NCBI GenBank assembly: GCA_903813345.2
Contig: CAIIXF020000125.1
Span: 62,001-126,000 of the forward strand
Reading direction: 5' to 3'
Source of the DNA: Owenia fusiformis
Lineage: Eukaryota > Annelida > Polychaeta > Sabellida > Oweniidae
Length of the DNA: 64,000 bases
In this document: piece after piece, positions 1 through 64,000 of the stretch
Numbering within the stretch: the first letter of the stretch is position 1
Layout of the letters: each line of letters begins with the position of its first letter
Translations under genes and position numbers: made by a program
The notes under the pieces: model-generated
What the model was told of the DNA's origin: nothing
Databases searched by the model: none
Seen by the model: only the letters and a program-made list of their open reading frames with translations

Positions 1-193
1 GTGTAGCAAGTGTATTGGCGTAGTAAACATACTATACTGTTTTTGTTCAATTAAATACCCGTAGCAGACGTAGTTGTACTTAGGGTGACCCTACAGTGTG
101 TATGTATACCTATAGACTCATGTTTAGGTGTAGCAAGTGTATTGGCGTAGTAAACATACTATACTGTTTTTCTTCAAGACTTAGCAGACGTAG
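1..193. repeat. Tail of the preceding HOR copy
   Basis: These alpha monomers precede the first phase marker. From about position 57 they align with 60842 onward (offset 60,785). The first roughly 50 bases differ from that counterpart (GTAAACATAC here, GTAATATTAATATAC there), so the two array ends diverge just upstream of the marker. Confidence 0.8.
81..93. other. Recurrent perfect palindrome TAGGGTGACCCTA (first example)
   Basis: TAGGGT and ACCCTA are exact reverse complements around one central G. The element recurs in most alpha monomers of standard length, preceded by ACT or ACA and followed by CAGTGTGTATG. A diverged form, ATAGGTTGACCCTATAG, occurs in a recurring minority. Such a dyad in a tandem repeat could be a protein-binding site. 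That is inference: no binding protein can be named from sequence alone. Confidence 0.6.
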
Positions 194-348
194 TTGTATA
201 TACAGTGTGTATGTATACCTATGGACTCGTGTTTAGGTGTAGCAAGCTTATTGGACTTATGTTTTGGTGTAGCAGGCGTAGTTGGCGTAGTCAATGCAGT
301 ATGTAGCTATACCCAGGGTACACCATGGCAGTGTGTGTGTACACCTAT

Positions 349-950
349 AGACTCATGTTTAGGTGTAGCAAGCGTATTGGCGTAGTAATATTAGCATACT
401 ATACTGTTTTTGTTCATTTAAATACCCGTAGCAGACGTAGTTGTACTTAGGGTGACCTGGCAGTGTGTATGTATACCTAAAGACTCATGTTTAGGTGTAG
501 CAAGCGTATTGGCGTAGTAAACATACTATACTGTTTTTCTTCAAGACGTAGCAGACGTAGTTGTATATACAGTGTGTATGTATACCTATGGACTCGTGTT
601 TAGGTGTAGCAAGCTTATTGGCGTAGTAAACATACTATACTGTTTTTGTTCAATTAAATAGCCGTAGCAGACGTAGTTGTACATGGGTGACCCTACAGTG
701 TGTATGTATACTTATAGTCTGATGTTTTGGTGTAGCAGACGTAGTTGGCGTTGTCAACACAGTACATACTATGAAGTTTTCATTTTAAATAAAATAATTG
801 TAGCAGAAGTAGCTATACCCGGGGTACACCATGGAGTGTGTGTTTACCTATAGACTCATGTTAAGATGAAGCAAGCGTAGTTGGCGGAGTAAACATACTA
901 TGCTCTTTTTATACCAAGGGTACACCATGGCAGTGTGTGTGTACACCTAT
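349..950. repeat. 602-bp internal duplication, first unit (R1)
   Basis: This five-monomer block recurs immediately downstream with a 602-bp offset (for example TTATAGTCT near 711 and 1313). The units differ at scattered bases: GGTGACCTGGCAG here against GGTGACCCTACAG in the second unit. Exact edges are arbitrary within the repeat period. R3-R7 lack the duplication (marker spacing 1,101 instead of 1,703 bp); R8 has it. Confidence 0.75.
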
Positions 951-1552
951 AGACTCATGTTTAGGTGTAGCCAGCGTATTGGCGTAGTAATATTAGCATA
1001 CTATACTGTTTTTGTTCATTTAAATACCCGTAGCAGACGTAGTTGTACTTAGGGTGACCCTACAGTGTGAATGTATACCTAAAGACTCATGTTTAGGTGT
1101 AGCAAGCGTATTGGCGTAGTAAACATACTATACTGTTTTTCTTCAAGACGTAGCAGACGTAGTTGTATATACAGTGTGTATGTATACCTATGGACTCGTG
1201 TTTAGGTGTAGCAAGCTTATTGGCGTAGTAAACATACTATACTGTTTTTGTTCAATTAAATAGCCGTAGCAGACGTAGTTGTACATGGGTGACCCTACAG
1301 TGTGTATGTATACTTATAGTCTCATGTTTTGGTGTAGCAGACGTAGTTGGCGTTGTCAACACAGTACATACTATGAAGTTTTCATTTTAAATAAAATACT
1401 TGTAGCAGAAGTAGCTATACCTGGGGTACACCATGGAGTGTGTGTTTACCTATAGACTCATGTTAAGATGAAGCAAGCGTAGTTGGCGGAGTAAACATAC
1501 TATGCTCTTTTTATACCAAGGGTACACCATGGCAGTGTGTGTGTACACCTAT
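951..1552. repeat. 602-bp internal duplication, second unit (R1)
   Basis: Second unit of the R1-specific five-monomer duplication. It begins with a private-looking GTAGCCAGCG monomer near 968 that R8 shares at about 61753. It ends at the GGTACACCATGGCAG monomer that continues into sequence common to all full copies. Confidence 0.75.
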
Positions 1553-3206
1553 AGACTCATGTTTAGGTGTAGCAAGCGTATTGGCGTAGTAATATTAACA
1601 TACTATACTGTTTTTGTTCATTTAAATACCCGTAGCAGACGTAGTTGTACATAGGGTGACCCTACAGTGTGTATGTATACCTATAGACTCATGTTTAGGT
1701 GTAGCAAGCGTATTGGCGTAGTAATATTAATATACTATACTGTTTTTGTTCATTTAAATACCCGTAGCAGACGTAGTTGTACTTAGGGTGACCCTACAGT
1801 GTGTATGTATACCTATAGACTCATGTTTAGATGTAGCAAGTGTATTGGCGTAGTAAACATACTATACTGTTTTTCTTCAAGACTTAGCAGACGTAGTTGT
1901 ATATACAGTGTGTATGTATACCTATGGACTCGTGTTTAGGTGTAGCAAGCTTATTGGACTTATGTTTTGGTGTAGCAGGCGTAGTTGGCGTAGTCAACGC
2001 AGTATGTAGCTATACCCAGGGTACACCATGGCAGTGTGTGTGTACACCTATAGACTCATGTTTAGGTGTAGCAAGCGTATTGGCGTAGTAATATTAGCAT
2101 ACTATACTGTTTTTGTTCATTTAAATACCCGTAGCAGACGTAGTTGTACTTAGGGTGACCCTACAGTATGTATGTATACCTATAGTCACATGTTTTGGTG
2201 TAGCAGACGTAGTTGGCGTTGTCAACACACTACATACTATAAGGTTTTTATTTAAAATAAAATACTTGAAGCAGATGTAGCTATACCCAGGGTACACCAT
2301 GGAGTGTGTGTGTATACCTATAGACTCATGTTTAGGTGTAGCAAGCGTATTGGCGTAGTAAACATCCTATACTGGTTTTGTTCAATTAAATAACCGTAGC
2401 AGGCGTAGTTAGCGTAGTCAACACAGTATGTAACTATTCCCAGGGTACACCACGGCAGTGTGTGTGTACACCTATAGACTCAGGTTAAGGAGTAGCAAGC
2501 GTATTGGCGTAGTAATATTATCATACTATACTGTTTTTGTTCATTTAAATACCCGTAGCAGACGTAGTTGTACATAGGCTGACCCTACAGTGTGTATGTA
2601 TACCTATAGTCTCATGTTTTGGTGTAGCAGACGTCGTTGGCGCTGTCAACACAGTACATACATGGTGTTTTTTAAATGAAATACTTGTAGCAGAAGAAGC
2701 TATACCCAGGGTACACCATGGAGTGTGTGTGTATACCTATAGACTCATGTTTAGATGTAGCAAGCGTAGTTGGCGGAGTAAACATACTATTCTGGTTTTG
2801 TTTTTAATTAAATACCCGTAGCAGACGTAGTTGTACATAGGGTGACCCTACAGTGTGTATGTATACCTATAGACTCATGTTTAGGTGTAGCAAGTGTATT
2901 GGCGTAGTAAACATACTATACTGTTTTTCTTCAAGACGTAGCAGACGTAGTTGTATATACAGTGTGTATGTATACCTATGGACTCGTGTTTAGGTGTAGC
3001 AAGCTTATTGGCGTAGTAAACATACTATACTATTTTTGTTCAATTAAATACCCGTAGCAGACGTAGCTGTACTTAGGGTGACCCTACAGTGTGTATGTAT
3101 ACCTATAGTCTCATGTTTTGGTGTAGCAGATGTAGTTGGCGTTGTCAACACAGTACATACTATAAGGTTTTTATTTTAAATAAAATACTTGTAGCAGAAG
3201 TAGCTG

Positions 3207-3378
3207 CAGTGTGTGTGTATACTTATACTGTGTATACTCAGGTTTACACCATGGCAGTGTACCCCAGCTATACTCAATAAAATACTCGTAGCAGACGAAA
3301 CTATACCCAAGGTACACCATGGCAGTGTGTGTGTATACTTATACTGTGTATACTCAGGTTTACACCATGGCAGTGTAC
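3207..3378. repeat. Irregular monomer cluster with 56-bp direct repeats (R1)
   Basis: Two nearly identical 56-bp segments (3207-3262 and 3323-3378, offset 116) carry TATACTTATACTGTGTATAC and GGTTTACACCATGGCAG. They replace the usual alpha/beta body and flank a short CTCGTAGCAGACGAAAC block. This is the most diverged regular piece of the HOR and recurs in R3-R7. Confidence 0.8.
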
Positions 3379-6110
3379 ACCAGGGCAGTATGTGTGTATA
3401 CCTATAGACTCATGTTTACGTGTAGCAAGCGTAGATGGCGTAGTAAACATACTATTTTTGTTTTCAATTAAATACCCGTAGCAGACGTAGTTGTACATAG
3501 GGTGACCCTACAGTGTGTATGTATACCTATAGTCTCATGTTTTGGTGTAGCAGGCGTAGTCAGCGAAGTCAACACAGTACATACTATGAAGTGGAAAGTT
3601 TCAATAAAATACTCGTAGCAGACGAAACTATACTCAAGGTACACCATGGCAGTGTGTGTGTATACCTATAGACTCATGTTTAGGTGTAGCAAGCATATTG
3701 GCGTAGTAAACATCCTATACTGGTTTTGTTCAATTAATTAACCGTAGCAGACGTAGTTGGACATAGGTTGACCCTATAGTGTGTATGTATACCTATGGAC
3801 TCATGTTTTGGTGTAGCAGGCGTAGTTGGCGTAGTCAGCACAGTATGTAGCTATACCCAGGGTACACCATGGCAGTGTGTTTGTACACCTATAGACTCAT
3901 GTTTAGGTGTAGCAAGCGTATTGGCGTAGTAATATTAACATACTATACTGTTTTTGTTCATTTAAATACCCGTAGCAGACGTAGCTGTACTTAGGGTGAC
4001 CCTACAGTGTGTATGTATACCTATGGACTCGTGTTTTGGTGTAGCAGACGTAGTTGGCGTTGTCAACACAGTACATACTATGAAGTTTTCATTTTAAATG
4101 AAAAACTTGTAGCAGAAGTACCTATACCCAGGGTACACCATGGCAGTGTGTGTGTACACCTATAGACTCATGTTTAGGTGTAGCAAGCGTATTGGCGTAG
4201 TAATATTAACATACTTTACTGTTTTTGTTCATTTAAATACCCGTAGCAGACGTAGTTGTACATAGGGTGACCCTACAGTGTGTATGTATACCTATGGACT
4301 CGTGTTTTGGTGTAGTAGACGTAGTTGGCGTTGTCAACACAGTACATACTATGAAGTTTTCATTTTATATAAAATAATTGTAGCAGAAGTAGCTATACCC
4401 AGGGTACACCATGGCAGTGTGTTTGTACACCTATAGACTCATGTTTAGGTGTAGCAAGCGTATTGGCGTAGTAATATTAACATACGTTACTGTTTTTGTT
4501 CATTTAAATACCCGTAGCAGACGTAGCTGTACTTAGGGTGACCCTACAGTGTGTTTGTATACCTATAGTCTCATGTTTTGGTGTAGCAGACGTAGTTGGC
4601 GTTGTCAACACAGTACATACTATAAGGTTTTTATTTTAAATAAAATACTTGTAGCAGAAGTAGCTATACTCAGGGTACACCATGGAGTGTGTGTGTATAC
4701 CTATAGACTCATGTTTAGGTGTAGCAAGCGTATTGGCGTAGTAAACATCCTATACTGTTTTTTTTTCAATTAAATAACCGTAGCAGACGTAGTTGGACAT
4801 AGGTTGACCCTATAGTGTGTATGTATACCTATGGACTCATGTTTTGGTGTAGCAGGCGTAGTTGGCGTAGTCAACACAGTATGTAGCTATATCCAGGGTA
4901 CACCATGGCAGTGTGTGTGTACACCTATAGACTTAAGTTAAGGAGTAGCAAGCGTATTGGCGTAGTAATATAAACATACTTTACTGTTTTTGTTCATTTA
5001 AATACCCGTAGCAGACGTAGCTGTACTTAGGGTGACCCTACAGTGTGTTTGTATACCTATAGTCTCATGTTTTGGTGTAGCAGACGTAGTTGGCGTTGTC
5101 AACACAGTACATACTATGAAGTTTTCATTTTAAATAAAATACTTGTAGCAAAAGTAGCTATACCCAGGGTACACCATGGAGTGTGTGTGTATACCTATAG
5201 ACTCATGTTTAGATGTAGCAAGCGTAGTTGGCGGAGTAAACATACTATGCTCTTTTTATACCCAGGGTACACCATGGCAGTGTGTGTGTACACCTATAGA
5301 CTCATTTTTAGGTGTAGCAAGCGTATTGGCGTAGTAATACTAACATACTATACTGTTTTTGTTCATTTAAATACCCGTAGCAGACGTAGCTGTACTTAGG
5401 GTGACCCTACAGTGTGTATGTATACCTATAGACTCATGTTTAGATGTAGCAAGCGTATTGGCTTAGTAATATTAACATACTATACTGTTTTTGTTCATTT
5501 AAATACCCGTAGCAGACGTAGTTGTACTTAGGGTGACCCTACAGTGTGTATGTATACCTATAGACTCATGTTTATGTGTAGCAAGTGTATTGGCGTAGTA
5601 AACATACTATACTGTTTTTCTTCAAGACGTAGCATACCTAGTTGTATATACAGTGTGAATGTATACCTATGGACTCGTGTTTAGGTGTAGCAAGCTTATT
5701 GGCGTAGTAAACATACTATACTGTTTTTGTTCAATTAAATAACCGTAGCAGACGTAGTTGGACATAGGTTGACCCTATAGTGTGTATGTATACCTATGGA
5801 CTCATGTTTTGGTGTAGCAGGCGTAGTTGGCGTAGTCAACACAGTATGTAGCTATACCCAGGGTACACAATGGCACTGTGTGTGTACACATATAGACTCA
5901 TGTTTAGGTGTAGCAAGCGTATTGGCGTAGTAAACATACTATACTGTTTTTGTTCCACTAAATAGCCGTAGCAGACGTAGTTGTACACAGGGTGACCCTA
6001 CAGTGTATATGTATATCTATACTCATGTTTTGGTGTAGCAGGTGTAGTTTGCGTAGTCAACACAGTATGTAGCTATACCCTGGGTACACCATGGCAGTGT
6101 GTGTGTATAC

Positions 6111-6370
6111 CTATAGACTCATGTTTAGGTGTAGCAAGCGTAGTTGGCGGAGTAAACATACTATACTGTTTTTGTTTTTAATTAAATACCCGTAGCAGAC
6201 GTAGTTGTACATGGGGTGACCCTACAGTGTATATTTATACCTATAGACTCATGTTTAGGTGTAGCAAGCGTAGTTGGCGGAGTAAACATACTATACTGTT
6301 TTTGTTTTTAATTAAATACCCGTAGCAGACGTAGTTGTACATGGGGTGACCCTACAGTGTGTATGTATAC
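6111..6370. repeat. Doubled 130-bp alpha monomer (R1)
   Basis: The monomers 6111-6240 and 6241-6370 are near-identical adjacent copies containing GGCGGAGTAAACATAC and TTTTTAATTAAATACCC. The junction carries ATATTTATAC instead of GTATGTATAC. The doubling is present in R1, R4 and R7 and single in R2, R3 and R5, so it marks the T lineage. Confidence 0.85.
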
Positions 6371-6666
6371 CTATAGTCTCATGTTTTGGTGTAGCAGACG
6401 TAGTTGGCGTTGTCAACACAGTACATACTATAAGGTTTTCATTTTAAATAAAATACTTGTAGCAGAAGTAGTTATACCCAGGGTACACCATGGAGTGTGT
6501 ATATACCTATAGACTCATGTTTAGATGTAGCAAGCGTAGTTGGCGGAGTAAACATACTATGCTCTTTTTATACCCAGGGTACACCATGGCAGTGTGTACT
6601 GTTTTTGTTCATTTAAATACCCGTAGCAGACGTAGTTGTACATAGGGTGACCCTACAGTGTGTATG

Positions 6667-6668
6667 TA
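6667..6668. other. Empty TA target site of the 643-bp transposon (R1)
   Basis: R1 reads GTGTATGTATACTTATAG here without interruption. The T copies have GTGTATGTA, then the element, then TATACTTATAG, so the TA at this spot is the target that was duplicated. Equivalent empty sites are at 13597-13598 (R2), 23593-23594 (R3) and 43278-43279 (R5). Confidence 0.9.
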
Positions 6669-9600
6669 TACTTATAGTCTCATGTTTTGGTGTAGCAGAC
6701 GTAGTTGGCGTTGTCAACACAGTACATACTATGAAGTTTTCATTTTAAATAAAATACTTGTAGCAGAAGTAGCTATACCCAGGGTACACCATGGAGTGTG
6801 TGTTTACCTATAGACTCATGTTTAGATGAAGCAAGCGTAGTTGGCGGAGTAAACATACTATGCTCTTTTTATACCCAGGGTACACCATGGCAGTGTGTGT
6901 GTACACCTATAGACTCATGTTTAGGTGTAGCAAGCGTATTGGCGTAGTAAACATACTATACTGTTTTTGTTCCATTAAATAGCCGTAGCAGACGTAGTTG
7001 TACATAGGGTGACCCTACAGTGTATATGTATATCTATAGACTCATGTTTTGGTGTAGAAGGCGTAGTTTGCGTAGTCAACACAGTATGTAGCTATACCCT
7101 GGGTACACCATGGCAGTGTGTGTGTATACCTATAGACTCATGTTATGGTGTAGCAAGCGTAGTTGGCGGAGTAAACATACTATTCTGGTTTTGTTTTTAA
7201 TTAAATACCCGTAGCAGACGTAGTTGTACATAGGGTGACCCTACAGTGTATATGTATACCAATAGACTCATGTTTTGATGTAGCAGGCGTAGTTGGCGAA
7301 GTCAACACAGTACATACTATGAAGTGGTAAGTTTCAATAAAATACTAGTAGCAGACGAAACTATACCCAAGGTACACCATGGCAGTGTGTGTGTATACTT
7401 ATATTGTGTATACTCAGGTTTACACCATGGCAGTGTACACCAGTGCTGTAATTGTGTGTACCTATGTAGTATGTAGCTATATCCAGGGTACACCATGGCA
7501 GTGTGTGTGTACACCCATAGACTCAAGTTAAGGAGTAGCAAGCGCATTGGCGTAGTAATATTTACATACTATACTCTTTTTGTTCATTTAAATACCCGTA
7601 GCAGACGTAGTTGTACATGGGGTGACCCTACAGTGTGTATGTATACCTATAGTCTCATGTTTTGGTGTAGCAGACGTAGTTGGCGTTGTCAACACAGTAC
7701 ATACTATGAAGTTTTCATTTTAAATAAAATAATTGTAGCAGAAGTAGCTATACCCAGGGTACACTCATGTTTAGGTGTAGCAAGCGTATTGGCGTAGTAA
7801 TATTCACATACTATACTGTTTTTGTTCATTTAAATACCCGTAGCAGACGTAGTTGTACATAGGGTGACCCTACAGTGTGTATGTATACCTATTGACTCAT
7901 GTTTAGGTGTAGCAAGCGTATTGGCGTAGTAATATTAGCATACTATACTGTTTTTGTTCATTTAAATATCCGTAGCAGACGTATTTGTACTTAGGGTGAC
8001 CCTACAGTGTGTATGTATACCTATAGACTCATGTTTAGGTGTAGCAAGCGTATTGGCGTAGTAAACATACTATACTGTTTTTCTTCAAGACGTAGTTGTA
8101 TATACAGTGTGTATTATTACCTATGGACTCGTGTTTAGGTGTAGCAAGCTTATTGTTTTTGTTCCATTAAATAGCCGTAGCAGACGTAGTTGTACATGGG
8201 TGACCCTACAATGTGTATGTATACTTATAGTCTCATGTTTTGGTGTAGCAGACGTAGTTGGCGTTGTCAACACAGTACATACTATGAAGTGGAAAGTTTC
8301 AATAAAATACTCGTAGCAGACGAAACTATACTCAAGGTACACCATGGCAGTGTGTGTGTATACCTATAGACTCATGTTTAGGTGTAGCAAGCATATTGGC
8401 GTAGTAAACATCCTATACTGGTTTTGTTCAATTAAATAACCGTAGCAGACGTAGTTGGACATAGGTTGACCCTATAGTGTGTATGTATACCTATGGACTC
8501 ATGTTTTGGTGTAGCAGGCGTAGTTGGCGTAGTCAGCACAGTATGTAGCTATACCCAGGGTACACCATGGCAGTGTGTTTGTACACCTATAGACTCATGT
8601 TTAGGTGTAGCAAGCGTATTGGCGTAGTAATATTAACATACTATACTGTTTTTGTTCATTTAAATACCCGTAGCAGACGTAGCTGTACTTAGGGTGACCC
8701 TACAGTGTGTATGTATACCTTTAGTCTCATGTTTTGGTGTAGCAGACGTAGTTGGCGTTGTCAACACAGTACATACTATAAGGTTTTTATTTTAAATAAA
8801 ATACTTGTAGCAGAAGTAGCTATACCCAGGGTACACCATGGAGTGTGTGTGTATAGCTATAGACTCATGTTTAGGTGTAGCAAGCGTATTGGCGTAGTAA
8901 ACATCCTATACTGGTTTTTTTCAATTAAATAACCGTAGCAGACGTAGTTGGACATAGGTTGACCCTATAGTGTGTATGTATACCTATGGACTCATGTTTT
9001 GGTGTAGCAGGCGTAGTTGGCGTAGTCAACACAGTATGTAGCTATATCCAGGGTACACCATGGCAGTGTGTGTGTACACCTATAGACTCAAGTTAAGGAG
9101 TAGCAAGCGTATTGGCGTAGTAATATTAACATACTATACTCTTTTTGTTCATTTAAATACCCGTAGCAGACGTAGTTGTACATGGGGTGACCCTACAGTG
9201 TGTATGTATACCTATAGTCTCATGTTTTGGTGTAGCAGACGTAGTTGGCGTTGTCAACACAGTACATACTATGAAGTTTTCATTTTAAATAAAATAATTG
9301 TAGCAGAAGTAGCTATACCCAGGGTACACCATGGCAGTGTGTGTGTACACCTATAGACTCATGTTTAGGTGTAGCAAGCGTATTGGCGTAGTAATATTAA
9401 CATACTATACTGTTTTTGTTCATTTAAATACCCGTAGCAGACGTAGTTGTACATAGGGTGACCCTACAGTGTGTATGTATACGTATAGACTCATGTTTAG
9501 GTGTAGCAAGCGTATTGGCGTAGTAATATTAGCATACTATACTGTTTTTGTTCATTTAAATATCCGTAGCAGACGTATTTGTACTTAGGGTGACCCTACA

Positions 9601-9698
9601 GTGTGTATGTATACCTATAGACTCATGTTTAGGTGTAGCAAGCGTATTGGCGTAGTAAACATACTATACTGTTTTTCTTCAAGACTTAGCAGACGTAG

Positions 9699-12600
9699 TT
9701 GTATATACAGTCTGTATGTATACCTATGGACTCGTGTTTAGGTGTAGCAAGCTTATTGGACTCATGTTTTGGTGTAGCAGGCGTAGTTGGCGTAGTCAAC
9801 GCAGTATGTAGCTATACCCAGGGTACACCATGGCAGTGTGTGTGTACACCTATAGACTCATGTTTAGGTGTAGCAAGCGTATTGGCGTAGTAATATTAGC
9901 ATACTATACTGTTTTTGTTCATTTAAATACCCGTAGCAGACGTAGTTGTACTTAGGGTGACCCTACAGTGTGTATGTATACCTAAAGACTCATGTTTAGG
10001 TGTAGCAAGCGTATTGGCGTAGTAAACATACTATACTGTTTTTCTTCAAGACGTAGCAGACGTAGTTGTATATACAGTGTGTATGTATACCTATGGACTC
10101 GTGTTTAGGTGTAGCAAGCTTATTGGCGTACTGTTTTTGTTCAATTAAATAACCGTAGCAGACGTAGTTGGACATAGGTTGACCCTATAGTGTGTATGTA
10201 TACCTATGGACTCATGTTTTGGTGTAGCAGGCGTAGTTGGCGTAGTCAACACAGTATGTAGCTATACCCAGGGTACACCATGGCAGTGTGTGTGTACACC
10301 TATAGACTCATGTTTAGGTGTAGAAAGCGTATTGGCGTAGTAATATTAACATACTATACTGTTTTTGTTCATTTAAATACCCGTAGCAGACGTAGTTGTA
10401 CATAGGGTGACCCTACAGTGTGTATGTATACCTATAGACTCATGTTTAGGTGTAGCAAGTGTATTGGCGTAGTAAACATACTATACTGTTTTTCTTCAAG
10501 ACGTAGCAGACGTAGTTGTATATACAGTGTGTATGTATACCTATGGACTTGTGTTTTGGTGTAGCAGGCGTAGTTTGCGTAGTCAACACAGTACATACTA
10601 TGAAGTGGTCATTTTCAAAAAAATACTCGTAGCAGACGTAGCTATACCCAGGGTACACAATTGCAGTGTGTGTGTACACATATAGACTCATGTTTAGGTG
10701 TAGCAAGCATATTGGCGTAGTAAACATACTATACTGTTTTTGTTCCATTAAATAGCCGTAGCAGACGTAGTTGTACAGTGTGACCCTACAGTGTATATGT
10801 ATATCTATAGACTCATGTTTTGGTGTAGCAGGCGTAGTTTGCGTAGTCAACACAGTATTTAGCTATACCCTGGGTACACCATGGCAGTGTGTGTGTATAC
10901 CTATAGACTCATGTTTAGGTGTAGCAAGCGTAGTTGGCGGAGTAAACATACTATACTGTTTTTGTTTTTAATTAAATACCCGTAGCAGACGTAGTTGTAC
11001 ATAGGGTGACCCTACAGTTTATATGTATATCTATAGACTCATGTTTTGATGTAGCAGGCGTATTTGCCGAAGTCAACACAGTTCATACTATGAAGTGGTA
11101 AGTTTCAATAAAATACTCGTAGCAGACGAAACTATACCTAAGGTACACCATGGCAGTGTGTACTTATACTGTGTATACTCAGGTTTACACCATGGCAGTG
11201 TACACCAGGGCAGTATGTGTGTATACCTATAGACTCATGTTTACGTGTAGCAAGCGTACATGGCGTAGTAAACATACTATTTTTGTTTTCAATTAAATAC
11301 CCGTATCAGACGTAGTTGTACATAGGGTGACCCTACAGTGTGTATTTATACCTATAGTCTCATGTTTTGGTGTAGCAGACGTAGTTGGTGTTGTCAACAC
11401 AGTACATACTATGAAGTTTTCATTTTAAATGAAATACTTGTAGCAGAAGTACCTATACCCAGGGTACACCATGGCAGTGTGTGTGTACACATATAGACTC
11501 ATGTTTAGGTGTAGCAAGCGTATTGGCGTAGTAATATTAACATACGTTACTGTTTTTGTTCATTTAAATACCCGTAGCAGACGTAGCTGTACTTAGGGTG
11601 ACCCTACAGTGTGTTTGTATACCTATAGTCTCATGTTTTGGTGTAGCAGACGTAGTTGGCGTTGTCAACACAGTACATACTATAAGGTTTTTATTTTAAA
11701 TAAAATACTTGTAGCAGAAGTAGCTATACTCAGGGTACACCATGGAGTGTGTGTGTATACCTATAGACTCATGTTTAGGTGTAGCAAGCGTATTGGCGTA
11801 GTAAACATCCTATACTGTTTTTTTTTCAATTAAATAACCGTAGCAGACGTAGTTGGACATAGGTTGACCCTATAGTGTGTATGTATACCTATGGACTCAT
11901 GTTTTGGTGTAGCAGGCGTAGTTGGCGTAGTCAACACAGTATGTAGCTATATCCAGGGTACACCATGGCAGTGTGTGTGTACACCTATAGACTTAAGTTA
12001 AGGAGTAGCAAGCGTATTGGCGTAGTAATATAAACATACTTTACTGTTTTTGTTCATTTAAATACCCGTAGCAGACGTAGTTGTACATAGGGTGACCCTA
12101 CAGTGTGTATGTATACCTATAGTCTCATGTTTTGGTGTAGCAGACGTAGTTGGCGTTGTCAACACAGTACATACTATGAAGTTTTCATTTTAAATAAAAT
12201 ACTTGTAGCAAAAGTAGCTATACCCAGGGTACACCATGGAGTGTGTGTGTATACCTATAGACTCATGTTTAGATGTAGCAAGCGTAGTTGGCGGAGTAAA
12301 CATACTATGCTCTTTTTATACCCAGGGTACACCATGGCAGTGTGTGTGTACACCTATAGACTCATTTTTAGGTGTAGCAAGCGTATTGGCGTAGTAATAC
12401 TAACATACTATACTGTTTTTGTTCATTTAAATACCCGTAGCAGACGTAGCTGTACTTAGGGTGACCCTACAGTGTGTATGTATACCTATAGACTCATGTT
12501 TAGATGTAGCAAGCGTATTGGCTTAGTAATATTAACATACTATACTGTTTTTGTTCATTTAAATACCCGTAGCAGACGTAGTTGTACTTAGGGTGACCCT

Positions 12601-15600: not shown

Positions 15601-16765
15601 TTAACATACTATACTGTTTTTGTTCATTTAAATACCCGTAGCAGACGTAGCTGTACTTAGGGTGACCCTACAGTGTGTATGTATACCTTTAGTCTCATGT
15701 TTTGGTGTAGCAGACGTAGTTGGCGTTGTCAACACAGTACATACTATAAGGTTTTTATTTTAAATAAAATACTTGTAGCAGAAGTAGCTATACCCAGGGT
15801 ACACCATGGAGTGTGTGTGTATAGCTATAGACTCATGTTTAGGTGTAGCAAGCGTATTGGCGTAGTAAACATCCTATACTGGTTTTTTTCAATTAAATAA
15901 CCGTAGCAGATGTAGTTGGACATAGGTTGACCCTATAGTGTGTATGTATACCTATGGACTCATGTTTTGGTGTAGCAGGCGTAGTTGGCGTAGTCAACAC
16001 AGTATGTAGCTATATCCAGGGTACACCATGGCAGTGTGTGTGTACACCTATAGACTCAAGTTAAGGAGTAGCAAGCGTATTGGCGTAGTAATATTAACAT
16101 ACTATACTCTTTTTGTTCATTTAAATACCCGTAGCAGACGTAGTTGTACATGGGGTGACCCTACAGTGTGTATGTATACCTATAGTCTCATGTTTTGGTG
16201 TAGCAGACGTAGTTGGCGTTGTCAACACAGTACATACTATGAAGTTTTCATTTTAAATAAAATAATTGTAGCAGAAGTAGCTATACCCAGGGTACACCAT
16301 GGCAGTGTGTGTGTACACCTATAGACTCATGTTTAGGTGTAGCAAGCGTATTGGCGTAGTAATATTAACATACTATACTGTTTTTGTTCACTTAAATACC
16401 CGTAGCAGACGTAGTTGTACATAGGGTGACCCTACAGTGTGTATGTATACGTATAGACTCATGTTTAGGTGTAGCAAGCGTATTGTTCATTTAAATATCC
16501 GTAGCAGACGTATTTGTACTTAGGGTGACCCTACAGTGTGTATGTATACCTATAGACTCATGTTTAGGTGTAGCAAGCGTATTGGCGTAGTAATATTAAT
16601 ATACTATACTGTTTTTGTTCATTAAAATACCCGTAGCAGACGTAGTTGTACTTAGGGTGACCCTACAGTGTGTATGTATACCTATAGACTCATGTTTAGG
16701 TGTAGCAAGTGTATTGGCGTAGTAAACATACTATACTGTTTTTCTTCAAGACTTAGCAGACGTAG
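9699..16765. repeat. HOR copy R2 (shortened chimera, L-type downstream part)
   Basis: R2 is 7,067 bp, about 2.9 kb shorter than R3. From about 10.72 kb onward it matches R3 at a constant offset of 9,996 bp, including L-specific bases. The stretch from 9699 to about 10.7 kb is a different monomer order that includes monomers resembling R1. It has private variants: a 14-bp deletion in TTGGCGTACTG at about 10130, GTAGAAAGCG near 10321 and an unusual beta monomer at about 10550-10670. It already lacks the 33 bp near 16482 and has an empty transposon site. Confidence 0.85.
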
Positions 16766-17518: not shown

Positions 17519-17650
17519 CTATAGACTCATGTTTAGGTGTAGCAAGCGTATTGGCGTAGTAATATTAACATACTATACTGTTTTTGTTCATTTAAATACC
17601 CGTAGCAGACGTAGTTGTACATAGGGTGACCCTACAGTGTGTATGTATAC
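17519..17650 (+). repeat. Exemplar alpha monomer (132 bp)
   Basis: This is a representative alpha monomer, phased on CTATAGACTCATG. In order it holds TTTAGGTGTAGCAAGCG, TTGGCGTAGTAATATTAACA, an AT-rich stretch with TTCATTTAAATACC, the block CCCGTAGCAGACGTAGTTG, the palindrome AGGGTGACCCT, and the GTGTGTATGTATAC lead-in to the next monomer. Shorter alphas have GTAAACATAC in place of GTAATATTAACATAC, or TTCTTCAAGACGTAGCAG with loss of the palindrome (109 bp, for example 2867-2975). Confidence 0.85.
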
Positions 17651-54300: not shown

Positions 54301-56239
54301 TGTATGTATACCTATGGACTCATGTTTTGGTGTAGCAGGCGTAGTTGGCGTAGTCAGCACAGTATGTAGCTATACCCAGGGTACACCATGGCAGTGTGTT
54401 TGTACACCTATAGACTCATGTTTAGGTGTAGCAAGCGTATTGGCGTAGTAATATTAACATACTATACTGTTTTTGTTCATTTAAATACCCGTAGCAGACG
54501 TAGCTGTACTTAGGGTGACCCTACAGTGTGTATGTATACCTATGGACTCGTGTTTTGGTGTAGCAGACGTAGTTGGCGTTGTCAACACAGTACATACTAT
54601 GAAGTTTTCATTTTAAATGAAATACTTGTAGCAGAAGTACCTATACCCAGGGTACACCATGGCAGTGTGTGTGTACACCTATAGACTCATGTTTAGGTGT
54701 AGCAAGCGTATTGGCGTAGTAATATTAACATACTTTACTGTTTTTGTTCATTTAAATACCCGTAGCAGACGTAGTTGTACATAGGGTGACCCTACAGTGT
54801 GTATGTACACCTATGGACTCGTGTTTTGGTGTAGTAGACGTAGTTGGCGTTGTCAACACAGTACATACTATGAAGTTTTCATTTTATATAAAATAATTGT
54901 AGCAGAAGTAGCTATACCCAGGGTACACCATGGCAGTGTGTTTGTACACCTATAGACTCATGTTTAGGTGTAGCAAGCGTATTGGCGTAGTAATATTAAC
55001 ATACGTTACTGTTTTTGTTCATTTAAATACCCGTAGCAGACGTAGCTGTACTTAGGGTGACCCTACAGTGTGTTTGTATACCTATAGTCTCATGTTTTGG
55101 TGTAGCAGACGTAGTTGGCGTTGTCAACACAGTACATACTATAAGGTTTTTATTTTAAATAAAATACTTGTAGCAGAAGTAGCTATACTCAGGGTACACC
55201 ATGGAGTGTGTGTGTATACCTATAGACTCATGTTTAGGTGTAGCAAGCGTATTGGCGTAGTAAACATCCTATACTGGTTTTTTTCAATTAAATAACCGTA
55301 GCAGACGTAGTTGGACATAGGTTGACCCTATAGTGTGTATGTATACCTATGGACTCATGTTTTGGTGTAGCAGGCGTAGTTGGCGTAGTCAACACAGTAT
55401 GTAGCTATATCCAGGGTACACCATGGCAGTGTGTGTGTACACCTATAGACTTAAGTTAAGGAGTAGCAAGCGTATTGGCGTAGTAATATAAACATACTTT
55501 ACTGTTTTTGTTCATTTAAATACCCGTAGCAGACGTAGCTGTACTTAGGGTGACCCTACAGTGTGTTTGTATACCTATAGTCTCATGTTTTGGTGTAGCA
55601 GACGTAGTTGGCGTTGTCAACACAGTACATACTATGAAGTTTTCATTTTAAATAAAATACTTGTAGCAAAAGTAGCTATACCCAGGGTACACCATGGAGT
55701 GTGTGTGTATACCTATAGACTCATGTTTAGATGTAGCAAGCGTAGTTGGCGGAGTAAACATACTATGCTCTTTTTATACCCAGGGTACACCATGGCAGTG
55801 TGTGTGTACACCTATAGACTCATTTTTAGGTGTAGCAAGCGTATTGGCGTAGTAATACTAACATACTATACTGTTTTTGTTCATTTAAATACCCGTAGCA
55901 GACGTAGCTGTACTTAGGGTGACCCTACAGTGTGTATGTATACCTATAGACTCATGTTTAGATGTAGCATGCGTATTGGCTTAGTAATATTAACATACTA
56001 TACTGTTTTTGTTCATTTAAATACCCGTAGCAGACGTAGTTGTACTTAGGGTGACCCTACAGTGTGTATGTATACCTATAGACTCATGTTTATGTGTAGC
56101 AAGTGTATTGGCGTAGTAAACATACTATACTGTTTTTCTTCAAGACGTAGCATACCTAGTTGTATATACAGTGTGAATGTATACCTATGGACTCGTGTTT
56201 AGGTGTAGCAAGCTTATTGGCGTAGTAAACATACTATAC
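51377..56239. repeat. 4,864-bp tandem duplication, second unit (4,863 bp)
   Basis: Direct repeat of 46513-51376. The only difference noticed is loss of one G in TATACCTGGGTAC near 51938, where the first unit has TATACCTGGGGTAC. At 56240 the sequence resumes the normal T-version continuation (TGTTTTTGTTCAATT), as a simple tandem duplication predicts. Confidence 0.9.
53726..53897. repeat. Irregular monomer cluster with 56-bp direct repeats (R7)
   Basis: R7 counterpart in the second unit of the 4,864-bp duplication, 4,863 bp from the R6 example, with direct repeats at 53726-53781 and 53842-53897. Confidence 0.8.
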
Positions 56240-56628
56240 TGTTTTTGTTCAATTAAATAACCGTAGCAGACGTAGTTGGACATAGGTTGACCCTATAGTG
56301 TGTATGTATACCTATGGACTCATGTTTTGGTGTAGCAGGCGTAGTTGGCGTAGTCAACACAGTATGTAGCTATACCCAGGGTACACAATGGCACTGTGTG
56401 TGTACACATATAGACTCATGTTTAGGTGTAGCAAGCGTATTGGCGTAGTAAACATACTATACTGTTTTTGTTCCACTAAATAGCCGTAGCAGACGTAGTT
56501 GTACACAGGGTGACCCTACAGTGTATATGTATATCTATACTCATGTTTTGGTGTAGCAGGTGTAGTTTGCGTAGTCAACACAGTATGTAGCTATACCCTG
56601 GGTACACCATGGCAGTGTGTGTGTATAC

Positions 56629-56888
56629 CTATAGACTCATGTTTAGGTGTAGCAAGCGTAGTTGGCGGAGTAAACATACTATACTGTTTTTGTTTTTAAT
56701 TAAATACCCGTAGCAGACGTAGTTGTACATGGGGTGACCCTACAGTGTATATTTATACCTATAGACTCATGTTTAGGTGTAGCAAGCGTAGTTGGCGGAG
56801 TAAACATACTATACTGTTTTTGTTTTTAATTAAATACCCGTAGCAGACGTAGTTGTACATGGGGTGACCCTACAGTGTGTATGTATAC
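56629..56888. repeat. Doubled 130-bp alpha monomer (R7)
   Basis: Adjacent copies 56629-56758 and 56759-56888 with the ATATTTATAC junction, as in R1 and R4. Confidence 0.85.
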
Positions 56889-57186
56889 CTATAGTCTCAT
56901 GTTTTGGTGTAGCAGACGTAGTTGGCGTTGTCAACACAGTACATACTATAAGGTTTTCATTTTAAATAAAATACTTGTAGCAGAAGTAGTTATACCTAGG
57001 GTACACCATGGAGTGTGTATATACCTATAGACTCATGTTTAGATGTAGCAAGCGTAGTTGGCGAAGTAAACATACTATGCTCTTTTTATACCCAGGGTAC
57101 ACCATGGCAGTGTGTACTGTTTTTGTTCATTTAAATACCCGTAGCAGACGTAGTTGTACATAGGGTGACCCTACAGTGTGTATGTA

Positions 57187-57372
57187 CAGGGTGTCCCGAA
57201 AGTATGGGGCCCCCCCTAGGCAGACATACACCAATGTTCCCATAGTATGTGTCATATATCATTTTAAAGCTTATCCAAAGTTACATTGATTTGCCAAGTA
57301 TCATCGTCCAACTTACAAATGGGAAAAAGTTACAGGCATTTCAAAACGTAGTGTATGGCCAAAATTAAAGTT
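57187..57372 (+). repeat. Left terminal inverted repeat of the transposon (R7)
   Basis: Counterpart of the R4 left arm, starting CAGGGTGTCCCG after TA. It pairs with 57644-57829. Confidence 0.88.
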
Positions 57373-57643
57373 AAAATCAGTATCCTGGAAACACCGCTAG
57401 CCTGAATGTGACCAAAAATATGGGTGCTATCGTTAAAGAGAGAATGGATATTGAGTTCTAAAAAGAGGATGTTTAGGGTAGATACTCCAAGGAAACTCTT
57501 CTAAAATGCCTTAAAAAGGTTTTATGAGGATTATTAAATGCCATACCCCTATTTGCAGTGTATTAAAGGTCATATCTGGAAAGAATTGCTGCTGTTAACA
57601 TGGCCAAGGGAGACACGGCGACCATTAATTTTGTGTAAAACTA

Positions 57644-57829
57644 AACTTTAATTTTGGTAAAACACTACATTTTGAAATGTGTGTAACTTTTTCCCGTTTG
57701 TGAGTTGAACCATGATACTTGGCAAATCAATGTAACTTTGGACAAGCTTTGAAATGATATATGACACATACTATGGGGACATTGGTGTATGTCTGCCTAG
57801 GGGGGGCCCCATACTTTCGGGACACCCTG
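57644..57829 (-). repeat. Right terminal inverted repeat of the transposon (R7)
   Basis: Counterpart of the R4 right arm, ending GGGACACCCTG before TA. It shows the same arm-to-arm mismatches as R4, so those mismatches predate the copying. Confidence 0.88.
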
Positions 57830-60800
57830 TATACTTATAGTCTCATGTTTTGGTGTAGCAGACGTAGTTGGCGTTGTCAACACAGTACATACTATGAAGT
57901 TTTCATTTTAAATAAAATACTTGTAGCAGAAGTAGCTATACCCAGGGTACACCATGGAGTGTGTGTTTACCTATAGACTCATGTTTAGATGAAGCAAGCG
58001 TAGTTGGCGGAGTAAACATACTATGCTCTTTTTATACCCAGGGTACACCATGGCAGTGTGTGTGTACACCTATAGACTCATGTTTAGGTGTAGCAAGCGT
58101 ATTGGCGTAGTAAACATACTATACTGTTTTTGTTCCATTAAATAGCCGTAGCAGACGTAGTTGTACATAGGGTGACCCTACAGTGTATATGTATATCTAT
58201 AGACTCATGTTTTGGTGTAGAAGGCGTAGTTTGCGTAGTCAACACAGTATGTAGCTATACCCTGGGTACACCATGGCAGTGTGTGTGTATACCTATAGAC
58301 TCATGTTATGGTGTAGCAAGCGTAGTTGGCGGAGTAAACATACTATTCTGGTTTTGTTTTTAATTAAATACCCGTAGCAGACGTAGTTGTACATAGGGTG
58401 ACCCTACAGTGTATATGTATACCAATAGACTCATGTTTTGATGTAGCAGGCGTAGTTGGCGAAGTCAACACAGTACATACTATGAAGTGGTAAGTTTCAA
58501 TAAAATACTAGTAGCAGACGAAACTATACCCAAGGTACACCATGGCAGTGTGTGTGTATACTTATATTGTGTATACTCAGGTTTACACCATGGCAGTGTA
58601 CACCAGTGCTGTAATTGTGTGTACCTATGTAGTATGTAGCTATATCCAGGGTACACCATGGCAGTGTGTGTGTACACCCATAGACTCAAGTTAAGGAGTA
58701 GCAAGCGCATTGGCGTAGTAATATTTACATACTATACTCTTTTTGTTCATTTAAATACCCGTAGCAGACGTAGTTGTACATGGGGTGACCCTACAGTGTG
58801 TATGTATACCTATAGTCTCATGTTTTGGTGTAGCAGACGTAGTTGGCGTTGTCAACACAGTACATACTATGAAGTTTTCATTTTAAATAAAATAATTGTA
58901 GCAGAAGTAGCTATACCCAGGGTACACCATGGCAGTGTGTGTGTACACCTATAGACTCATGTTTAGGTGTAGCAAGCGTATTGGCGTAGTAATATTCACA
59001 TACTATACTGTTTTTGTTCATTTAAATACCCGTAGCAGACGTAGTTGTACATAGGGTGACCCTACAGTGTGTATGTATACCTATAGATTCATGTTTAGGT
59101 GTAGCAAGCGTATTGGCGTAGTAATATTAGCATACTATACTGTTTTTGTTCATTTAAATATCCGTAGCAGACGTATTTGTACTTAGGGTGACCCTACAGT
59201 GTGTATGTATACCTATAGACTCATGTTTAGGTGTAGCAAGCGTATTGGCGTAGTAAACATACTATACTGTTTTTCTTCAAGACGTAGCAGACGTAGTTGT
59301 ATATACAGTGTGTATGTTTACCTATGGACTCGTGTTTAGGTGTAGCAAGCTTATTGTTTTTGTTCCATTAAATAGCCGTAGCAGACGTAGTTGTACATGG
59401 GTGACCCTACAATGTGTATGTATACTTATAGTCTCATGTTTTGGTGTAGCAGACGTATTTGGCGTTGTCAACACAGTACATACTATGAAGTGGAAAGTTT
59501 CAATAAAATACTCGTAGCAGACGAAACTATACTCAAGGTACACCATGGCAGTGTGTGTGTATACCTATAGACTCATGTTTAGGTGTAGCAAGCATATTGG
59601 CGTAGTAAACATCCTATACTGGTTTTGTTCAATTAAATAACCGTAGCAGACGTAGTTGGACATAGGTTGACCCTATAGTGTGTATGTATACCTATGGACT
59701 CATGTTTTGGTGTAGCAGGCGTAGTTGGCGTAGTCAGCACAGTATGTAGCTATACCCAGGGTACACCATGGCAGTGTGTTTGTACACCTATAGACTCATG
59801 TTTAGGTGTAGCAAGCGTATTGGCGTAGTAATATTAACATACTATACTGTTTTTGTTCATTTAAATACCCGTAGCAGACGTAGCTGTACTTAGGGTGACC
59901 CTACAGTGTGTATGTATACCTTTAGTCTCATGTTTTGGTGTAGCAGACGTAGTTGGCGTTGTCAACACAGTACATACTATAAGGTTTTTATTTTAAATAA
60001 AATACTTGTAGCAGAAGTAGCTATACCCAGGGTACACCATGGAGTGTGTGTGTATAGCTATAGACTCATGTTTAGGTGTAGCAAGCGTATTGGCGTAGTA
60101 AACATCCTATACTGGTTTTTTTCAATTAAATAACCGTAGCAGATGTAGTTGGACATAGGTTGACCCTATAGTGTGTATGTTTTGGTGTAGCAGGCGTAGT
60201 TGGCGTAGTCAACACAGTATGTAGCTATATCCAGGGTACACCATGGCAGTGTGTGTGTACACCTATAGACTCAAGTTAAGGAGTAGCAAGCGTATTGGCG
60301 TAGTAATATTAACATACTATACTCTTTTTGTTCATTTAAATACCCGTAGCAGACGTAGTTGTACATGGGGTGACCCTACAGTGTGTATGTATACCTATAG
60401 TCTCATGTTTTGGTGTAGCAGACGTAGTTGGCGTTGTCAACACAGTACATACTATGAAGTTTTCATTTTAAATAAAATAATTGTAGCAGAAGTAGCTATA
60501 CCCAGGGTACACCATGGCAGTGTAGACTCACCTATAGACTCATGTTTAGGTGTAGCAAGCGTATTGGCGTAGTAATATTAACATACTATACTGTTTTTGT
60601 TCATTTAAATACCCGTAGCAGACGTAGTTGTACATAGGGTGACCCTACAGTGTGTATGTATACGTATAGACTCATGTTTAGGTGTAGCAAGCGTATTGTT
60701 CATTTAAATATCCGTAGCAGACGTATTTGTACTTAGGGTGACCCTACAGTGTGTATGTATACCTATAGACTCATGTTTAGGTGTAGCAAGCGTATTGGCG

Positions 60801-61133
60801 TAGTAATATTAATATACTATACTCTTTTTGTTCATTAAAATACCCGTAGCAGACGTAGTTGTACTTAGGGTGACCCTACAGTGTGTATGTATACCTATAG
60901 ACTCATGTTTAGGTGTAGCAAGTGTATTGGCGTAGTAAACATACTATACTGTTTTTCTTCAAGACTTAGCAGACGTAGTTGTATATACAGTGTGTATGTA
61001 TACCTATGGACTCGTGTTTAGGTGTAGCAAGCTTATTGGACTTATGTTTTGGTGTAGCAGGCGTAGTTGGCGTAGTCAATGCAGTATGTAGCTATACCCA
61101 GGGTACACCATGGCAGTGTGTGTGTACACCTAT

Positions 61134-61735
61134 AGACTCATGTTTAGGTGTAGCAAGCGTATTGGCGTAGTAATATTAGCATACTATACTGTTTTTGTTC
61201 ATTTAAATACCCGTAGCAGACGTAGTTGTACTTAGGGTGACCCTACAGTGTGTATGTATACCTAAAGACTCATGTTTAGGTGTAGCAAGCGTATTGGCGT
61301 AGTAAACATACTATACTGTTTTTCTTCAAGACGTAGCAGACGTAGTTGTATATACAGTGTGTATGTATACCTATGGACTCGTGTTTAGGTGTAGCAAGCT
61401 TATTGGCGTAGTAAACATACTATACTGTTTTTGTTCAATTAAATAGCCGTAGCAGACGTAGTTGTACATGGGTGACCCTACAGTGTGTATGTATACTTAT
61501 AGTCTCATGTTTTGGTGTAGCAGACGTAGTTGGCGTTGTCAACACAGTACATACTATGAAGTTTTCATTTTAAATAAAATAATTGTAGCAGAAGTAGCTA
61601 TACCCGGGGTACACCATGGAGTGTGTGTTTACCTATAGACTCATGTTAAGATGAAGCAAGCGTAGTTGGCGGAGTAAACATACTATGCTCTTTTTATACC
61701 AAGGGTACACCATGGCAGTGTGTGTGTACACCTAT
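61134..61735. repeat. 602-bp internal duplication, first unit (R8)
   Basis: Counterpart of R1 349-950. It has GGTGACCCTACAG where the R1 unit has GGTGACCTGGCAG. The second form also occurs in the inner copies R3, R4, R5 and R7, which suggests a conversion tract or retention of different ancestral alleles. Confidence 0.72.
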
Positions 61736-62337
61736 AGACTCATGTTTAGGTGTAGCCAGCGTATTGGCGTAGTAATATTAGCATACTATACTGTTTTTGT
61801 TCATTTAAATACCCGTAGCAGACGTAGTTGTACTTAGGGTGACCCTACAGTGTGAATGTATACCTAAAGACTCATGTTTAGGTGTAGCAAGCGTATTGGC
61901 GTAGTAAACATACTATACTGTTTTTCTTCAAGACGTAGCAGACGTAGTTGTATATACAGTGTGTATGTATACCTATGGACTCGTGTTTAGGTGTAGCAAG
62001 CTTATTGGCGTAGTAAACATACTATACTGTTTTTGTTCAATTAAATAGCCGTAGCAGACGTAGTTGTACATGGGTGACCCTACAGTGTGTATGTATACTT
62101 ATAGTCTCATGTTTTGGTGTAGCAGACGTAGTTGGCGTTGTCAACACAGTACATACTATGAAGTTTTCATTTTAAATAAAATACTTGTAGCAGAAGTAGC
62201 TATACCTGGGGTACACCATGGAGTGTGTGTTTACCTATAGACTCATGTTAAGATGAAGCAAGCGTAGTTGGCGGAGTAAACATACTATGCTCTTTTTATA
62301 CCAATGGTACACCATGGCAGTGTGTGTGTACACCTAT
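61736..62337. repeat. 602-bp internal duplication, second unit (R8)
   Basis: Counterpart of R1 951-1552, including the GTAGCCAGCG monomer and GTGTGAATGTATACCTAAAG. Shared by descent with R1 and absent from the inner copies. Confidence 0.72.
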
Positions 62338-64000
62338 AGACTCATGTTTAGGTGTAGCAAGCGTATTGGCGTAGTAATATTAACATACTATACTGTTTTT
62401 GTTCATTTAAATACCCGTAGCAGACGTAGTTGTACATAGGGTGACCCTACAGTGTGTATGTATACCTATAGACTCATGTTTAGGTGTAGCAAGCGTATTG
62501 GCGTAGTAATATTAATATACTATACTGTTTTTGTTCATTTAAATACCCGTAGCAGACGTAGTTGTACTTAGGGTGACCCTACAGTGTGTATGTATACCTA
62601 TAGACTCATGTTTAGGTGTAGCAAGTGTATTGGCGTAGTAAACATACTATACTGTTTTTCTTCAAGACTTAGCAGACGTAGTTGTATATACAGTGTGTAT
62701 GTATACCTATGGACTCGTGTTTAGGTGTAGCAAGCTTATTGGACTTATGTTTTGGTGTAGCAGGCGTAGTTGGCGTAGTCAACGCAGTATGTAGCTATAC
62801 CCAGGGTACACCATGGCAGTGTGTGTGTACACCTATAGACTCATGTTTAGGTGTAGCAAGCGTATTGGCGTAGTAATATTAGCATACTATACTGTTTTTG
62901 TTCATTTAAATACCCGTAGCAGACGTAGTTGTACTTAGGGTGACCCTACAGTATGTATGTATACCTATAGTCACATGTTTTGGTGTAGCAGACGTAGTTG
63001 GCGTTGTCAACACACTATATACTATAAGGTTTTTATTTAAAATAAAATACTTGAAGCAGATGTAGCTATACCCAGGGTACACCATGGAGTGTGTGTGTAT
63101 ACCTATAGACTCATGTTTAGGTGTAGCAAGCGTATTGGCGTAGTAAACATCCTATACTGGTTTTGTTCAATTAAATAACCGTAGCAGGCGTAGTTAGCGT
63201 AGTCAACACAGTATGTAGCTATTCCCAGGGTACACCACGGCAGTGTGTGTGTACACCTATAGACTCAGGTTAAGGAGTAGCAAGCGTATTGGCGTAGTAA
63301 TATTATCATACTATACTGTTTTTGTTCATTTAAATACCCGTAGCAGACGTAGTTGTACATAGGCTGACCCTACAGTGTGTATGTATACCTATAGTCTCAT
63401 GTTTTGGTGTAGCAGACGTCGTTGGCGCTGTCAACACAGTACATACTATAAGGTTTTCATTTTAAATGAAATACTTGTAGCAGAAGAAGCTATACCCAGG
63501 GTACACCATGGAGTGTGTGTGTATACCTATAGACTCATGTTTAGATGTAGCAAGCGTAGTTGGCGGAGTAAACATACTATTCTGGTTTTGTTTTTAATTA
63601 AATACCCGTAGCAGACGTAGTTGTACATAGGGTGACCCTACAGTGTGTATGTATACCTATAGACTCATGTTTAGGTGTAGCAAGTGTATTGGCGTAGTAA
63701 ACATACTATACTGTTTTTCTTCAAGACGTAGCAGACGTAGTTGTATATACAGTGTGTATGTATACCTATGGACTCGTGTTTAGGTGTAGCAAGCTTATTG
63801 GCGTAGTAAACATACTATACTATTTTTGTTCAATTAAATACCCGTAGCAGACGTAGCTGTACTTAGGGTGACCCTACAGTGTGTATGTATACCTATAGTC
63901 TCATGTTTTGGTGTAGCAGATGTAGTTGGCGTTGTCAACACAGTACATACTATAAGGTTTTTATTTTAAATAAAATACTTGTAGCAGAAGTAGCTGCAGT

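What the first reader, a model, noticed from the sequence alone, without database searches (positions are those of the whole stretch)
1..64000. Three-tier satellite: ~60-bp half-monomers, ~120-bp monomers, ~10-kb HOR of roughly 75-80 monomers
Monomers about 10 kb apart are almost identical while neighbours differ widely. The HOR unit (9,996 and 9,689 bp) is several times longer than classical human alpha-satellite HORs, which are mostly a few kb or less. I do not recognise the monomer family.
Basis: partly seen in the sequence, partly recalled or inferred. Interest (0 to 1): 0.72.

Follow-up and report, generated by a model that had tools for sequence, protein, structure and literature searches.

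The report
Large layered satellite DNA repeat array
This stretch is a block of noncoding satellite DNA in which roughly 130-letter repeats are stacked into nearly identical 10,000-letter units, two of which form a still larger 19,685-letter unit marked by one transposon insertion; it is a long but recognisable form of a known kind of chromosome repeat.

Summary
The 64 kb are one head-to-tail satellite; the only interruption found is a 643-bp transposon-like element, present twice. The 9,996- and 9,689-bp periods are real but belong to two unit types, Q (no insert) and P (with insert), which alternate Q-P-Q-P', so the newest repeating unit is 19,685 bp. Its two copies show 0 substitutions over 19,241 bp. 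Adjacent Q and P (U2, U3) differ by 10 substitutions in 8,914 aligned bases plus a 1,082-bp block, one 130-bp monomer and the insert. The second P carries a further 4,863-bp duplication. The older flanking unit U0 is P-type with an empty insertion site, which polarises the insertion. The modal monomer is 132 bp (median 130), with 79 per Q and 71-72 per P. The "half-monomers" share a 16-bp start and no detectable homology beyond it. Best explanation: layered unequal exchange in a long satellite array, plausibly centromeric or pericentromeric (untested). HORs of this size are in print: orangutan 58-, 59- and 84-mers, human 52-mer. Organism and monomer family were not identified, and no repeat library was available. 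The perfect 19.7-kb copy could be an assembly error.

The parts
1..6668 (+). U0: partial older unit, P-type without the insert (empty site at 6668/6669); carries a 602-bp tandem duplication (308-909, 910-1511) absent from the corresponding stretch of U2
   Evidence: 910-6668 vs 26876-32638: 23 mismatches in 5,758, 3 small gaps, no 130-bp gap; exact 42-nt empty site at 6647; 602-bp copy
6669..13594 (+). U1: shortened unit (6,926 bp), start haplotype m, carries the 1,082-bp Q block at 10737-11818
13595..23590 (+). U2: Q-type unit, 9,996 bp, no insert, start haplotype n
20733..21814 (+). 1,082-bp block present in U1, U2 and U4, absent from U3 (direction of change unknown)
23591..33279 (+). U3: P-type unit, 9,689 bp, with insert, start haplotype n
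32076..32330 (+). extra 130-bp monomer in P (125 bp of exact tandem copy at lag 130)
32639..33281 (+). 643-bp palindromic MITE-like insert, 186-bp terminal inverted repeats (13 mismatches), TA target duplication
33280..43275 (+). U4: Q-type unit, 9,996 bp, start haplotype m (unit boundary as used in the alignments overlaps the last 2 bases of the insert)
43276..57827 (+). U5: P-type unit with internal 4,863-bp tandem duplication (46519-51382 copied at 51383-56245)
57187..57829 (+). second, identical copy of the MITE-like insert
57828..64000 (+). U6: partial unit, start haplotype m; its later part shares the 602-bp tandem duplication of U0
1569..1700 (+). example of the canonical 132-bp monomer: 63-bp arm A + 69-bp arm B
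   Evidence: decomposition

Best explanation
The window lies inside a long satellite array, presumably eukaryotic, built by successive rounds of out-of-register (unequal) homologous exchange. Two arms (58-68 and 69-71 bp) make a ~132-bp monomer. Monomers were duplicated in blocks until a ~10-kb unit of ~72-79 monomers formed. That unit duplicated and diverged into types P and Q. One P copy received a TA-inserting, non-autonomous DNA transposon. The neighbouring Q+P pair (19,685 bp) was then copied as one block, and the later P gained a 4,863-bp duplication. Shown: tiers, unit types, single orientation, the order of events relative to the insert, no long open reading frame. Inferred: that the exchanges were unequal crossing-over or a related recombination process, and that the array serves as centromeric or pericentromeric chromatin (my estimate about 0.5 for that sub-claim).
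For: Single orientation: GTAGCA 851 forward, 0 reverse. 19,685 = 9,996 + 9,689. U2 vs U4: 6 mismatches in 9,996; U3 vs U5: 0 in 9,689 apart from the 4,863-bp duplication; U2 vs U3: 10 in 8,914. 0 mismatches in pieces of 15,306, 5,890 and 2,353 bp, which together cover 16392-35632 = 19,241 bp. Five linked sites: U2, U3, U5 (after Q-type ends) carry one haplotype and U1, U4, U6 (after P-type ends) the other, 6 of 6 units for which the start is in the window. Empty site in P-type U0. The 130-bp event is one whole monomer; the 1,082-bp event breaks at nt 38/39 of the same arm kind after 627 bp that are 94.6% alike. The 4,863-bp junction follows a closely similar stretch and 6 shared bases. No ORF of 150 aa or more, no Rfam or tRNA match.
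Against: Only two copies of the 19,685-bp unit are in the window, so that tier could be a single duplication or an assembly duplication. At the 1,082-bp breakpoint only 5 bases are exactly shared, and the 4,863-bp junction joins unlike arm positions (nt 41 of an a arm to nt 67 of a B arm), so exchange strictly in register is not shown there. Older copies are less alike: U0 vs U3 99.6%, U1 vs U2 99.3% with nine gaps. U4 vs U5 aligned with 48 mismatches in 9,995 and 11 gaps, which I put down to the aligner spreading the 4,863-bp duplication over many gaps. No chromatin, FISH or read data. No CENP-B box; 4 of 4 monomers folded no better than shuffles.
Confidence: 0.78

Rival explanations
1. The 19,685-bp tier is an assembly artefact: the assembler walked one path twice, and only the ~10-kb P/Q organisation is real.
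For: 0 substitutions in 19,241 bp, longer than many accurate long reads (general knowledge); only two copies.
Against: The second P has a private 4,863-bp duplication with a 1-base length difference between its copies; U2 and U4 differ at 6 sites, five of which form a haplotype tied to the preceding unit. The P/Q difference itself cannot come from a double walk.
Confidence: 0.17
2. Break-induced replication or rolling-circle re-insertion, rather than unequal crossing-over, made the large duplications (not exclusive of the best explanation).
For: Break-induced replication is reported to change human centromeric array length (PMC11034957, abstract and outline seen); a 19.7-kb jump without substitutions fits one-step copying; the 4,863-bp junction joins unlike arm positions.
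Against: The 130- and 1,082-bp events lie in monomer register, as unequal exchange would give. Sequence alone hardly separates the two.
Confidence: 0.3
3. A non-centromeric satellite block (subtelomeric, interstitial or sex-chromosome heterochromatin) with no kinetochore role.
For: No CENP-B box; nothing in the window places it on a chromosome.
Against: Length, homogeneity and HOR structure are common in centromeric arrays, but this is recalled general knowledge and not diagnostic.
Confidence: 0.4

Closest known systems
Cascading alpha-satellite superHORs of orangutan (Y 58-mer; chr13 59-mer; chr5 84-mer)
   Same: Units of tens of monomers, ~10-14 kb by monomer count x 171 bp (my arithmetic); monomer types recur within the unit; for the Y 58-mer and the chr13 59-mer, units are nearly identical (0.25% and 0.1% divergence reported).
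   Different: Monomer ~132 bp of two unlike arms, not ~171 bp; no CENP-B box found; two alternating unit types, one with a transposon insert; only a handful of units seen here.
Human chr21 52-mer HOR (PMC12385485, abstract and outline seen)
   Same: Very long HOR unit.
   Different: Alpha satellite, different monomer length.
Tc1/mariner-type MITEs (short, palindromic, TA target; class features recalled)
   Same: TA duplication, 186-bp terminal inverted repeats, 643 bp, no long ORF.
   Different: No transposase source or family match could be searched; family unknown.

Membership tests
Satellite higher-order repeat (HOR) | Head-to-tail monomers in one orientation | tested here: met
   851 forward vs 0 reverse anchors
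Satellite higher-order repeat (HOR) | Multi-monomer unit repeated with identity far above that between monomers | tested here: met
   99.9-100% for U2/U3, U2/U4, U3/U5 and 99.3-99.6% for the older U0, U1, against medians of 0.65 (neighbouring monomers) and 88.7% (best neighbour of a tile)
Willard-type HOR | All monomers within a unit are of different types (5% rule) | tested here: not met
   Q: 79 monomers in 36 types at 95%, 18 types used more than once; P: 71 in 31, 17 more than once (gap-penalised identity)
Cascading superHOR | Very long unit with monomer types recurring within it | tested here: met
   usage of the term
Alpha satellite | ~171-bp monomer | tested here: not met
   mode 132, median 130; no sequence comparison with alpha satellite was made
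Alpha satellite | CENP-B box in a subset of monomers | tested here: not met
   0 core matches on either strand; best 8 of 9 positions at 3 places (box recalled)
Centromeric satellite | CENP-A/CENH3 occupancy | not testable with these tools
   no chromatin data
Tc1/mariner-type MITE | TA target duplication against a real empty site | tested here: met
   TA on both sides; 42-nt empty site exact at 12 places, 4 of them at the homologous unit ends (6647, 13577, 23573, 43258)
Tc1/mariner-type MITE | Terminal inverted repeats, no coding capacity | tested here: met
   186 bp, 13 mismatches; longest stop-to-stop frame overlapping it 72 aa, running out of the element
Tc1/mariner-type MITE | Mobilised by a transposase of that superfamily | not testable with these tools
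   no whole genome held for this window

The most novel reading that the evidence does not exclude
A previously undescribed satellite family, outside alpha satellite, whose current amplification unit is a 19,685-bp, ~150-monomer block of two alternating ~10-kb superHORs tagged by a transposon, giving a natural marked clock for ordering array expansions.
Probability: 0.35. Interest if true: 0.55.

Novelty: new variant of a known kind. Interest (0 to 1): 0.38.

Why it matters
The very long HOR units that I found in print are primate alpha satellite. A ~10-kb superHOR on a ~132-bp two-arm monomer would suggest that very long units are a general outcome of array recombination. The insert with its empty-site relative lets the layers be put in order: P/Q split, then insertion, then the 19.7-kb copying, then the 4.9-kb duplication. 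That order can be tested in populations of the source species once it is known.

Tried and rejected
Half-monomers as homologous halves: the arm kinds share a 16-bp start, but without it 777, 839, 776 and 534 of 1000 shuffles score as well as or better than the real pair for A-B, C-B, C-D and A-D. A conserved protein-binding box at that start: it ranked first among 16-nt windows in arms A/a (of 45) and B (of 54), but 11 of 53 in C and 47 of 55 in D (partly circular because arms were cut at it). With an independent anchor the first box still ranked 1 of 112, but the middle one ranked 43 of 112, so I dropped the idea (48 distinct of the 52 monomers of 120-142 bp, out of 76 in one unit).

Coding repeat: no frame of 150 aa. 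Structured RNA or tRNA: none at the thresholds used. Single-strand folding: 4 monomers tested, z -0.01, 0.37, 0.83, 0.22. AT-dinucleotide periodicity: weak values of 0.05-0.09 at lags 9-11 and 0.08 at 21 and 30, no control run, not interpreted. CENP-B box: none. A further interruption of the satellite: of 426 tiles of 150 bp, the 7 with fewer than 30 matches elsewhere all lie in the two inserts, and the only arm spacings above 200 bp are the two inserts.

Relatives: six patterns from monomer and insert gave 0 matches in viral contigs, and the insert gave no match in phage records. One genome contigs pattern gave 3 single matches against 3.7 expected by chance with even base use; blastn of the three loci against one 19.7-kb unit pair found 0, 0 and 2 hits of 27 bp. 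A full-text search for monomer and insert strings found 10 papers, 9 listed; those 9 held only 'cagggtgtccc' or 'gggtacaccatgg' and are on unrelated subjects by title. A search with 132 bp, HOR and Tc1-mariner terms found 2 papers, not opened. Searches were seen as listings; from them I opened PMC12428378, PMC11276891, PMC4053949, PMC12385485 and PMC11034957 only. The first check of the 4,863-bp junction at a fixed lag showed no similarity, because the flanks differ by small gaps; the gapped alignment did show it.

Full report
What is there. The window is one head-to-tail satellite: the arm anchor GTAGCA occurs 851 times forward and never in reverse. It has no frame of 150 aa, no Rfam match at gathering score and no tRNA. 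GC is 38.5-39.9% per 2 kb, and AT skew is weakest at 32-34 kb and 56-58 kb, where the two copies of an inserted element lie. No other interruption was found: of 426 tiles of 150 bp, only 7, all inside the inserts, have fewer than 30 matches in the window.

Monomers. A parser with five arm models gave two kinds of arm: 58-68 bp (A, a, C) and 69-71 bp (B, D); 688 of its 1,251 segments are full arms, the rest truncated or hybrid pieces. Together two arms make a monomer with modal spacing 132 bp (123 of 499 spacings), median 130 and mean 128; shorter forms of 96, 99 and 109 bp are common. The two arm kinds begin with nearly the same 16 bp, but the rest shows no similarity above shuffles, so 'half-monomer' describes spacing rather than proven ancestry.

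Units. The five highest lags are 19,685, 9,996, 29,681, 24,548 and 9,689. Self-alignment and direct checks give: U0 1-6668 (partial), U1 6669-13594 (6,926 bp), U2 13595-23590 (9,996), U3 23591-33279 (9,689), U4 33280-43275 (9,996), U5 43276-57827 (14,552), U6 57828-64000 (partial). U2 and U4 are type Q; U3 and U5 are type P. Q has a 1,082-bp block that P lacks; P has one extra 130-bp monomer and the insert; otherwise U2 and U3 differ at 10 of 8,914 aligned bases. U5 is U3 plus a 4,863-bp tandem duplication and no other change; the two copies match without mismatch in 555 + 4,308 bp, with one base of length difference. A direct U4-U5 alignment gave 48 mismatches in 9,995 and 11 gaps; I take this as the aligner scattering the duplication, since U5 equals U3 over every base of U3.

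The newest tier. Q+P (19,685 bp) is present twice: 0 mismatches in pieces covering 16392-35632, 19,241 bp. With 0 observed, the usual 95% bound is about 3/19,241, or 1.6e-4 (my arithmetic); a date would need a mutation rate and a species, which are unknown. Six differences remain between U2 and U4, all in the first 2.8 kb. Five of them form two haplotypes: U2, U3 and U5 have T-A-T-T-G; U1, U4 and U6 have A-G-G-A-A. The second follows P-type ends and the first follows Q-type ends, in 6 of 6 units whose start is in the window.

The insert. 32639-33281 and 57187-57829 are identical 643-bp elements with 186-bp terminal inverted repeats (13 mismatches) and TA on both sides. The uninterrupted 42-nt site occurs exactly 12 times in the window, four of them at the homologous ends of U0, U1, U2 and U4. 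This fits a non-autonomous Tc1/mariner-type element (assignment from TA and inverted repeats, recalled knowledge). U0 is P-type by structure and by 23 mismatches in 5,758 bases, yet its site is empty, so P predates the insertion.

Older layers. U1 matches U2 at 99.3% with nine gaps of 9-765 bp. The two ends of the window, 1-3210 and 60781-64000, match at 15 mismatches in 3,210 and share a 602-bp tandem duplication that the corresponding part of U2 lacks, so the recent Q+P copying sits between copies of an older kind.

Inside a unit. At 95%, 79 monomers of Q fall into 36 types, 18 of them used more than once; 71 of P fall into 31 types, 17 used more than once. This is a cascading pattern in the sense of Gluncic and colleagues, not a Willard pattern. 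Identity was gap-penalised and clustering greedy, so type counts are approximate.

Mechanism. Length differences of 130, 1,082, 4,863, ~10,000 and 19,685 bp are seen. The 130-bp event is one whole monomer and the 1,082-bp event breaks at nt 38/39 of the same arm kind, although only 5 bases are exactly shared there. The 4,863-bp junction follows a closely similar stretch and ends in 6 shared bases, but joins unlike arm positions. I infer unequal homologous exchange; break-induced replication, for which there is experimental support in human cells (PMC11034957, abstract and outline), is not excluded. A centromeric or pericentromeric role is plausible but untested; no CENP-B box was found.

Known relatives. 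Orangutan Y 58-mer with 0.25% divergence and an 84-mer on chromosome 5 (PMC12428378; abstract and Discussion read), orangutan chr13 59-mer (PMC11276891; passages) and a human chr21 52-mer (PMC12385485; abstract and outline) show that HOR units of about 9-14 kb exist. HORs are widespread in plants and animals (PMC4053949, passages: clear HOR in 76 of 171 species with Sanger data). What is unusual here is the combination: a ~132-bp two-arm monomer, two alternating unit types and a transposon tag. I found no matching satellite in the string search or the titles, but no repeat library was searched and the organism is unknown.

Verdict. Real, well-formed and long, but a variant of a known kind. The main caution is that the perfect 19.7-kb copy may be an assembly product.

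Noticed in passing
window 32639-33281 and 57187-57829: Identical 643-bp palindromic MITE-like elements with GGGGCCCCCCC near the end and TA target duplication; family not identified.
   Followed up: yes
window 308-1511 and 61093-62296: Both ends of the window carry a 602-bp tandem duplication (9 and 5 mismatches between copies) that the corresponding stretch of U2 lacks, so an older unit form flanks the recent Q+P copies.
   Followed up: partly
window 13595-16391: All six U2/U4 differences lie in the first 2.8 kb of a 10-kb unit; five are a haplotype tied to the preceding unit type, which may mark an exchange point near 16391.
   Followed up: partly
window 1-64000: CpG observed/expected 0.67 with CpA 1.43, a moderate CpG deficit that could reflect DNA methylation; not tested.
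   Followed up: no
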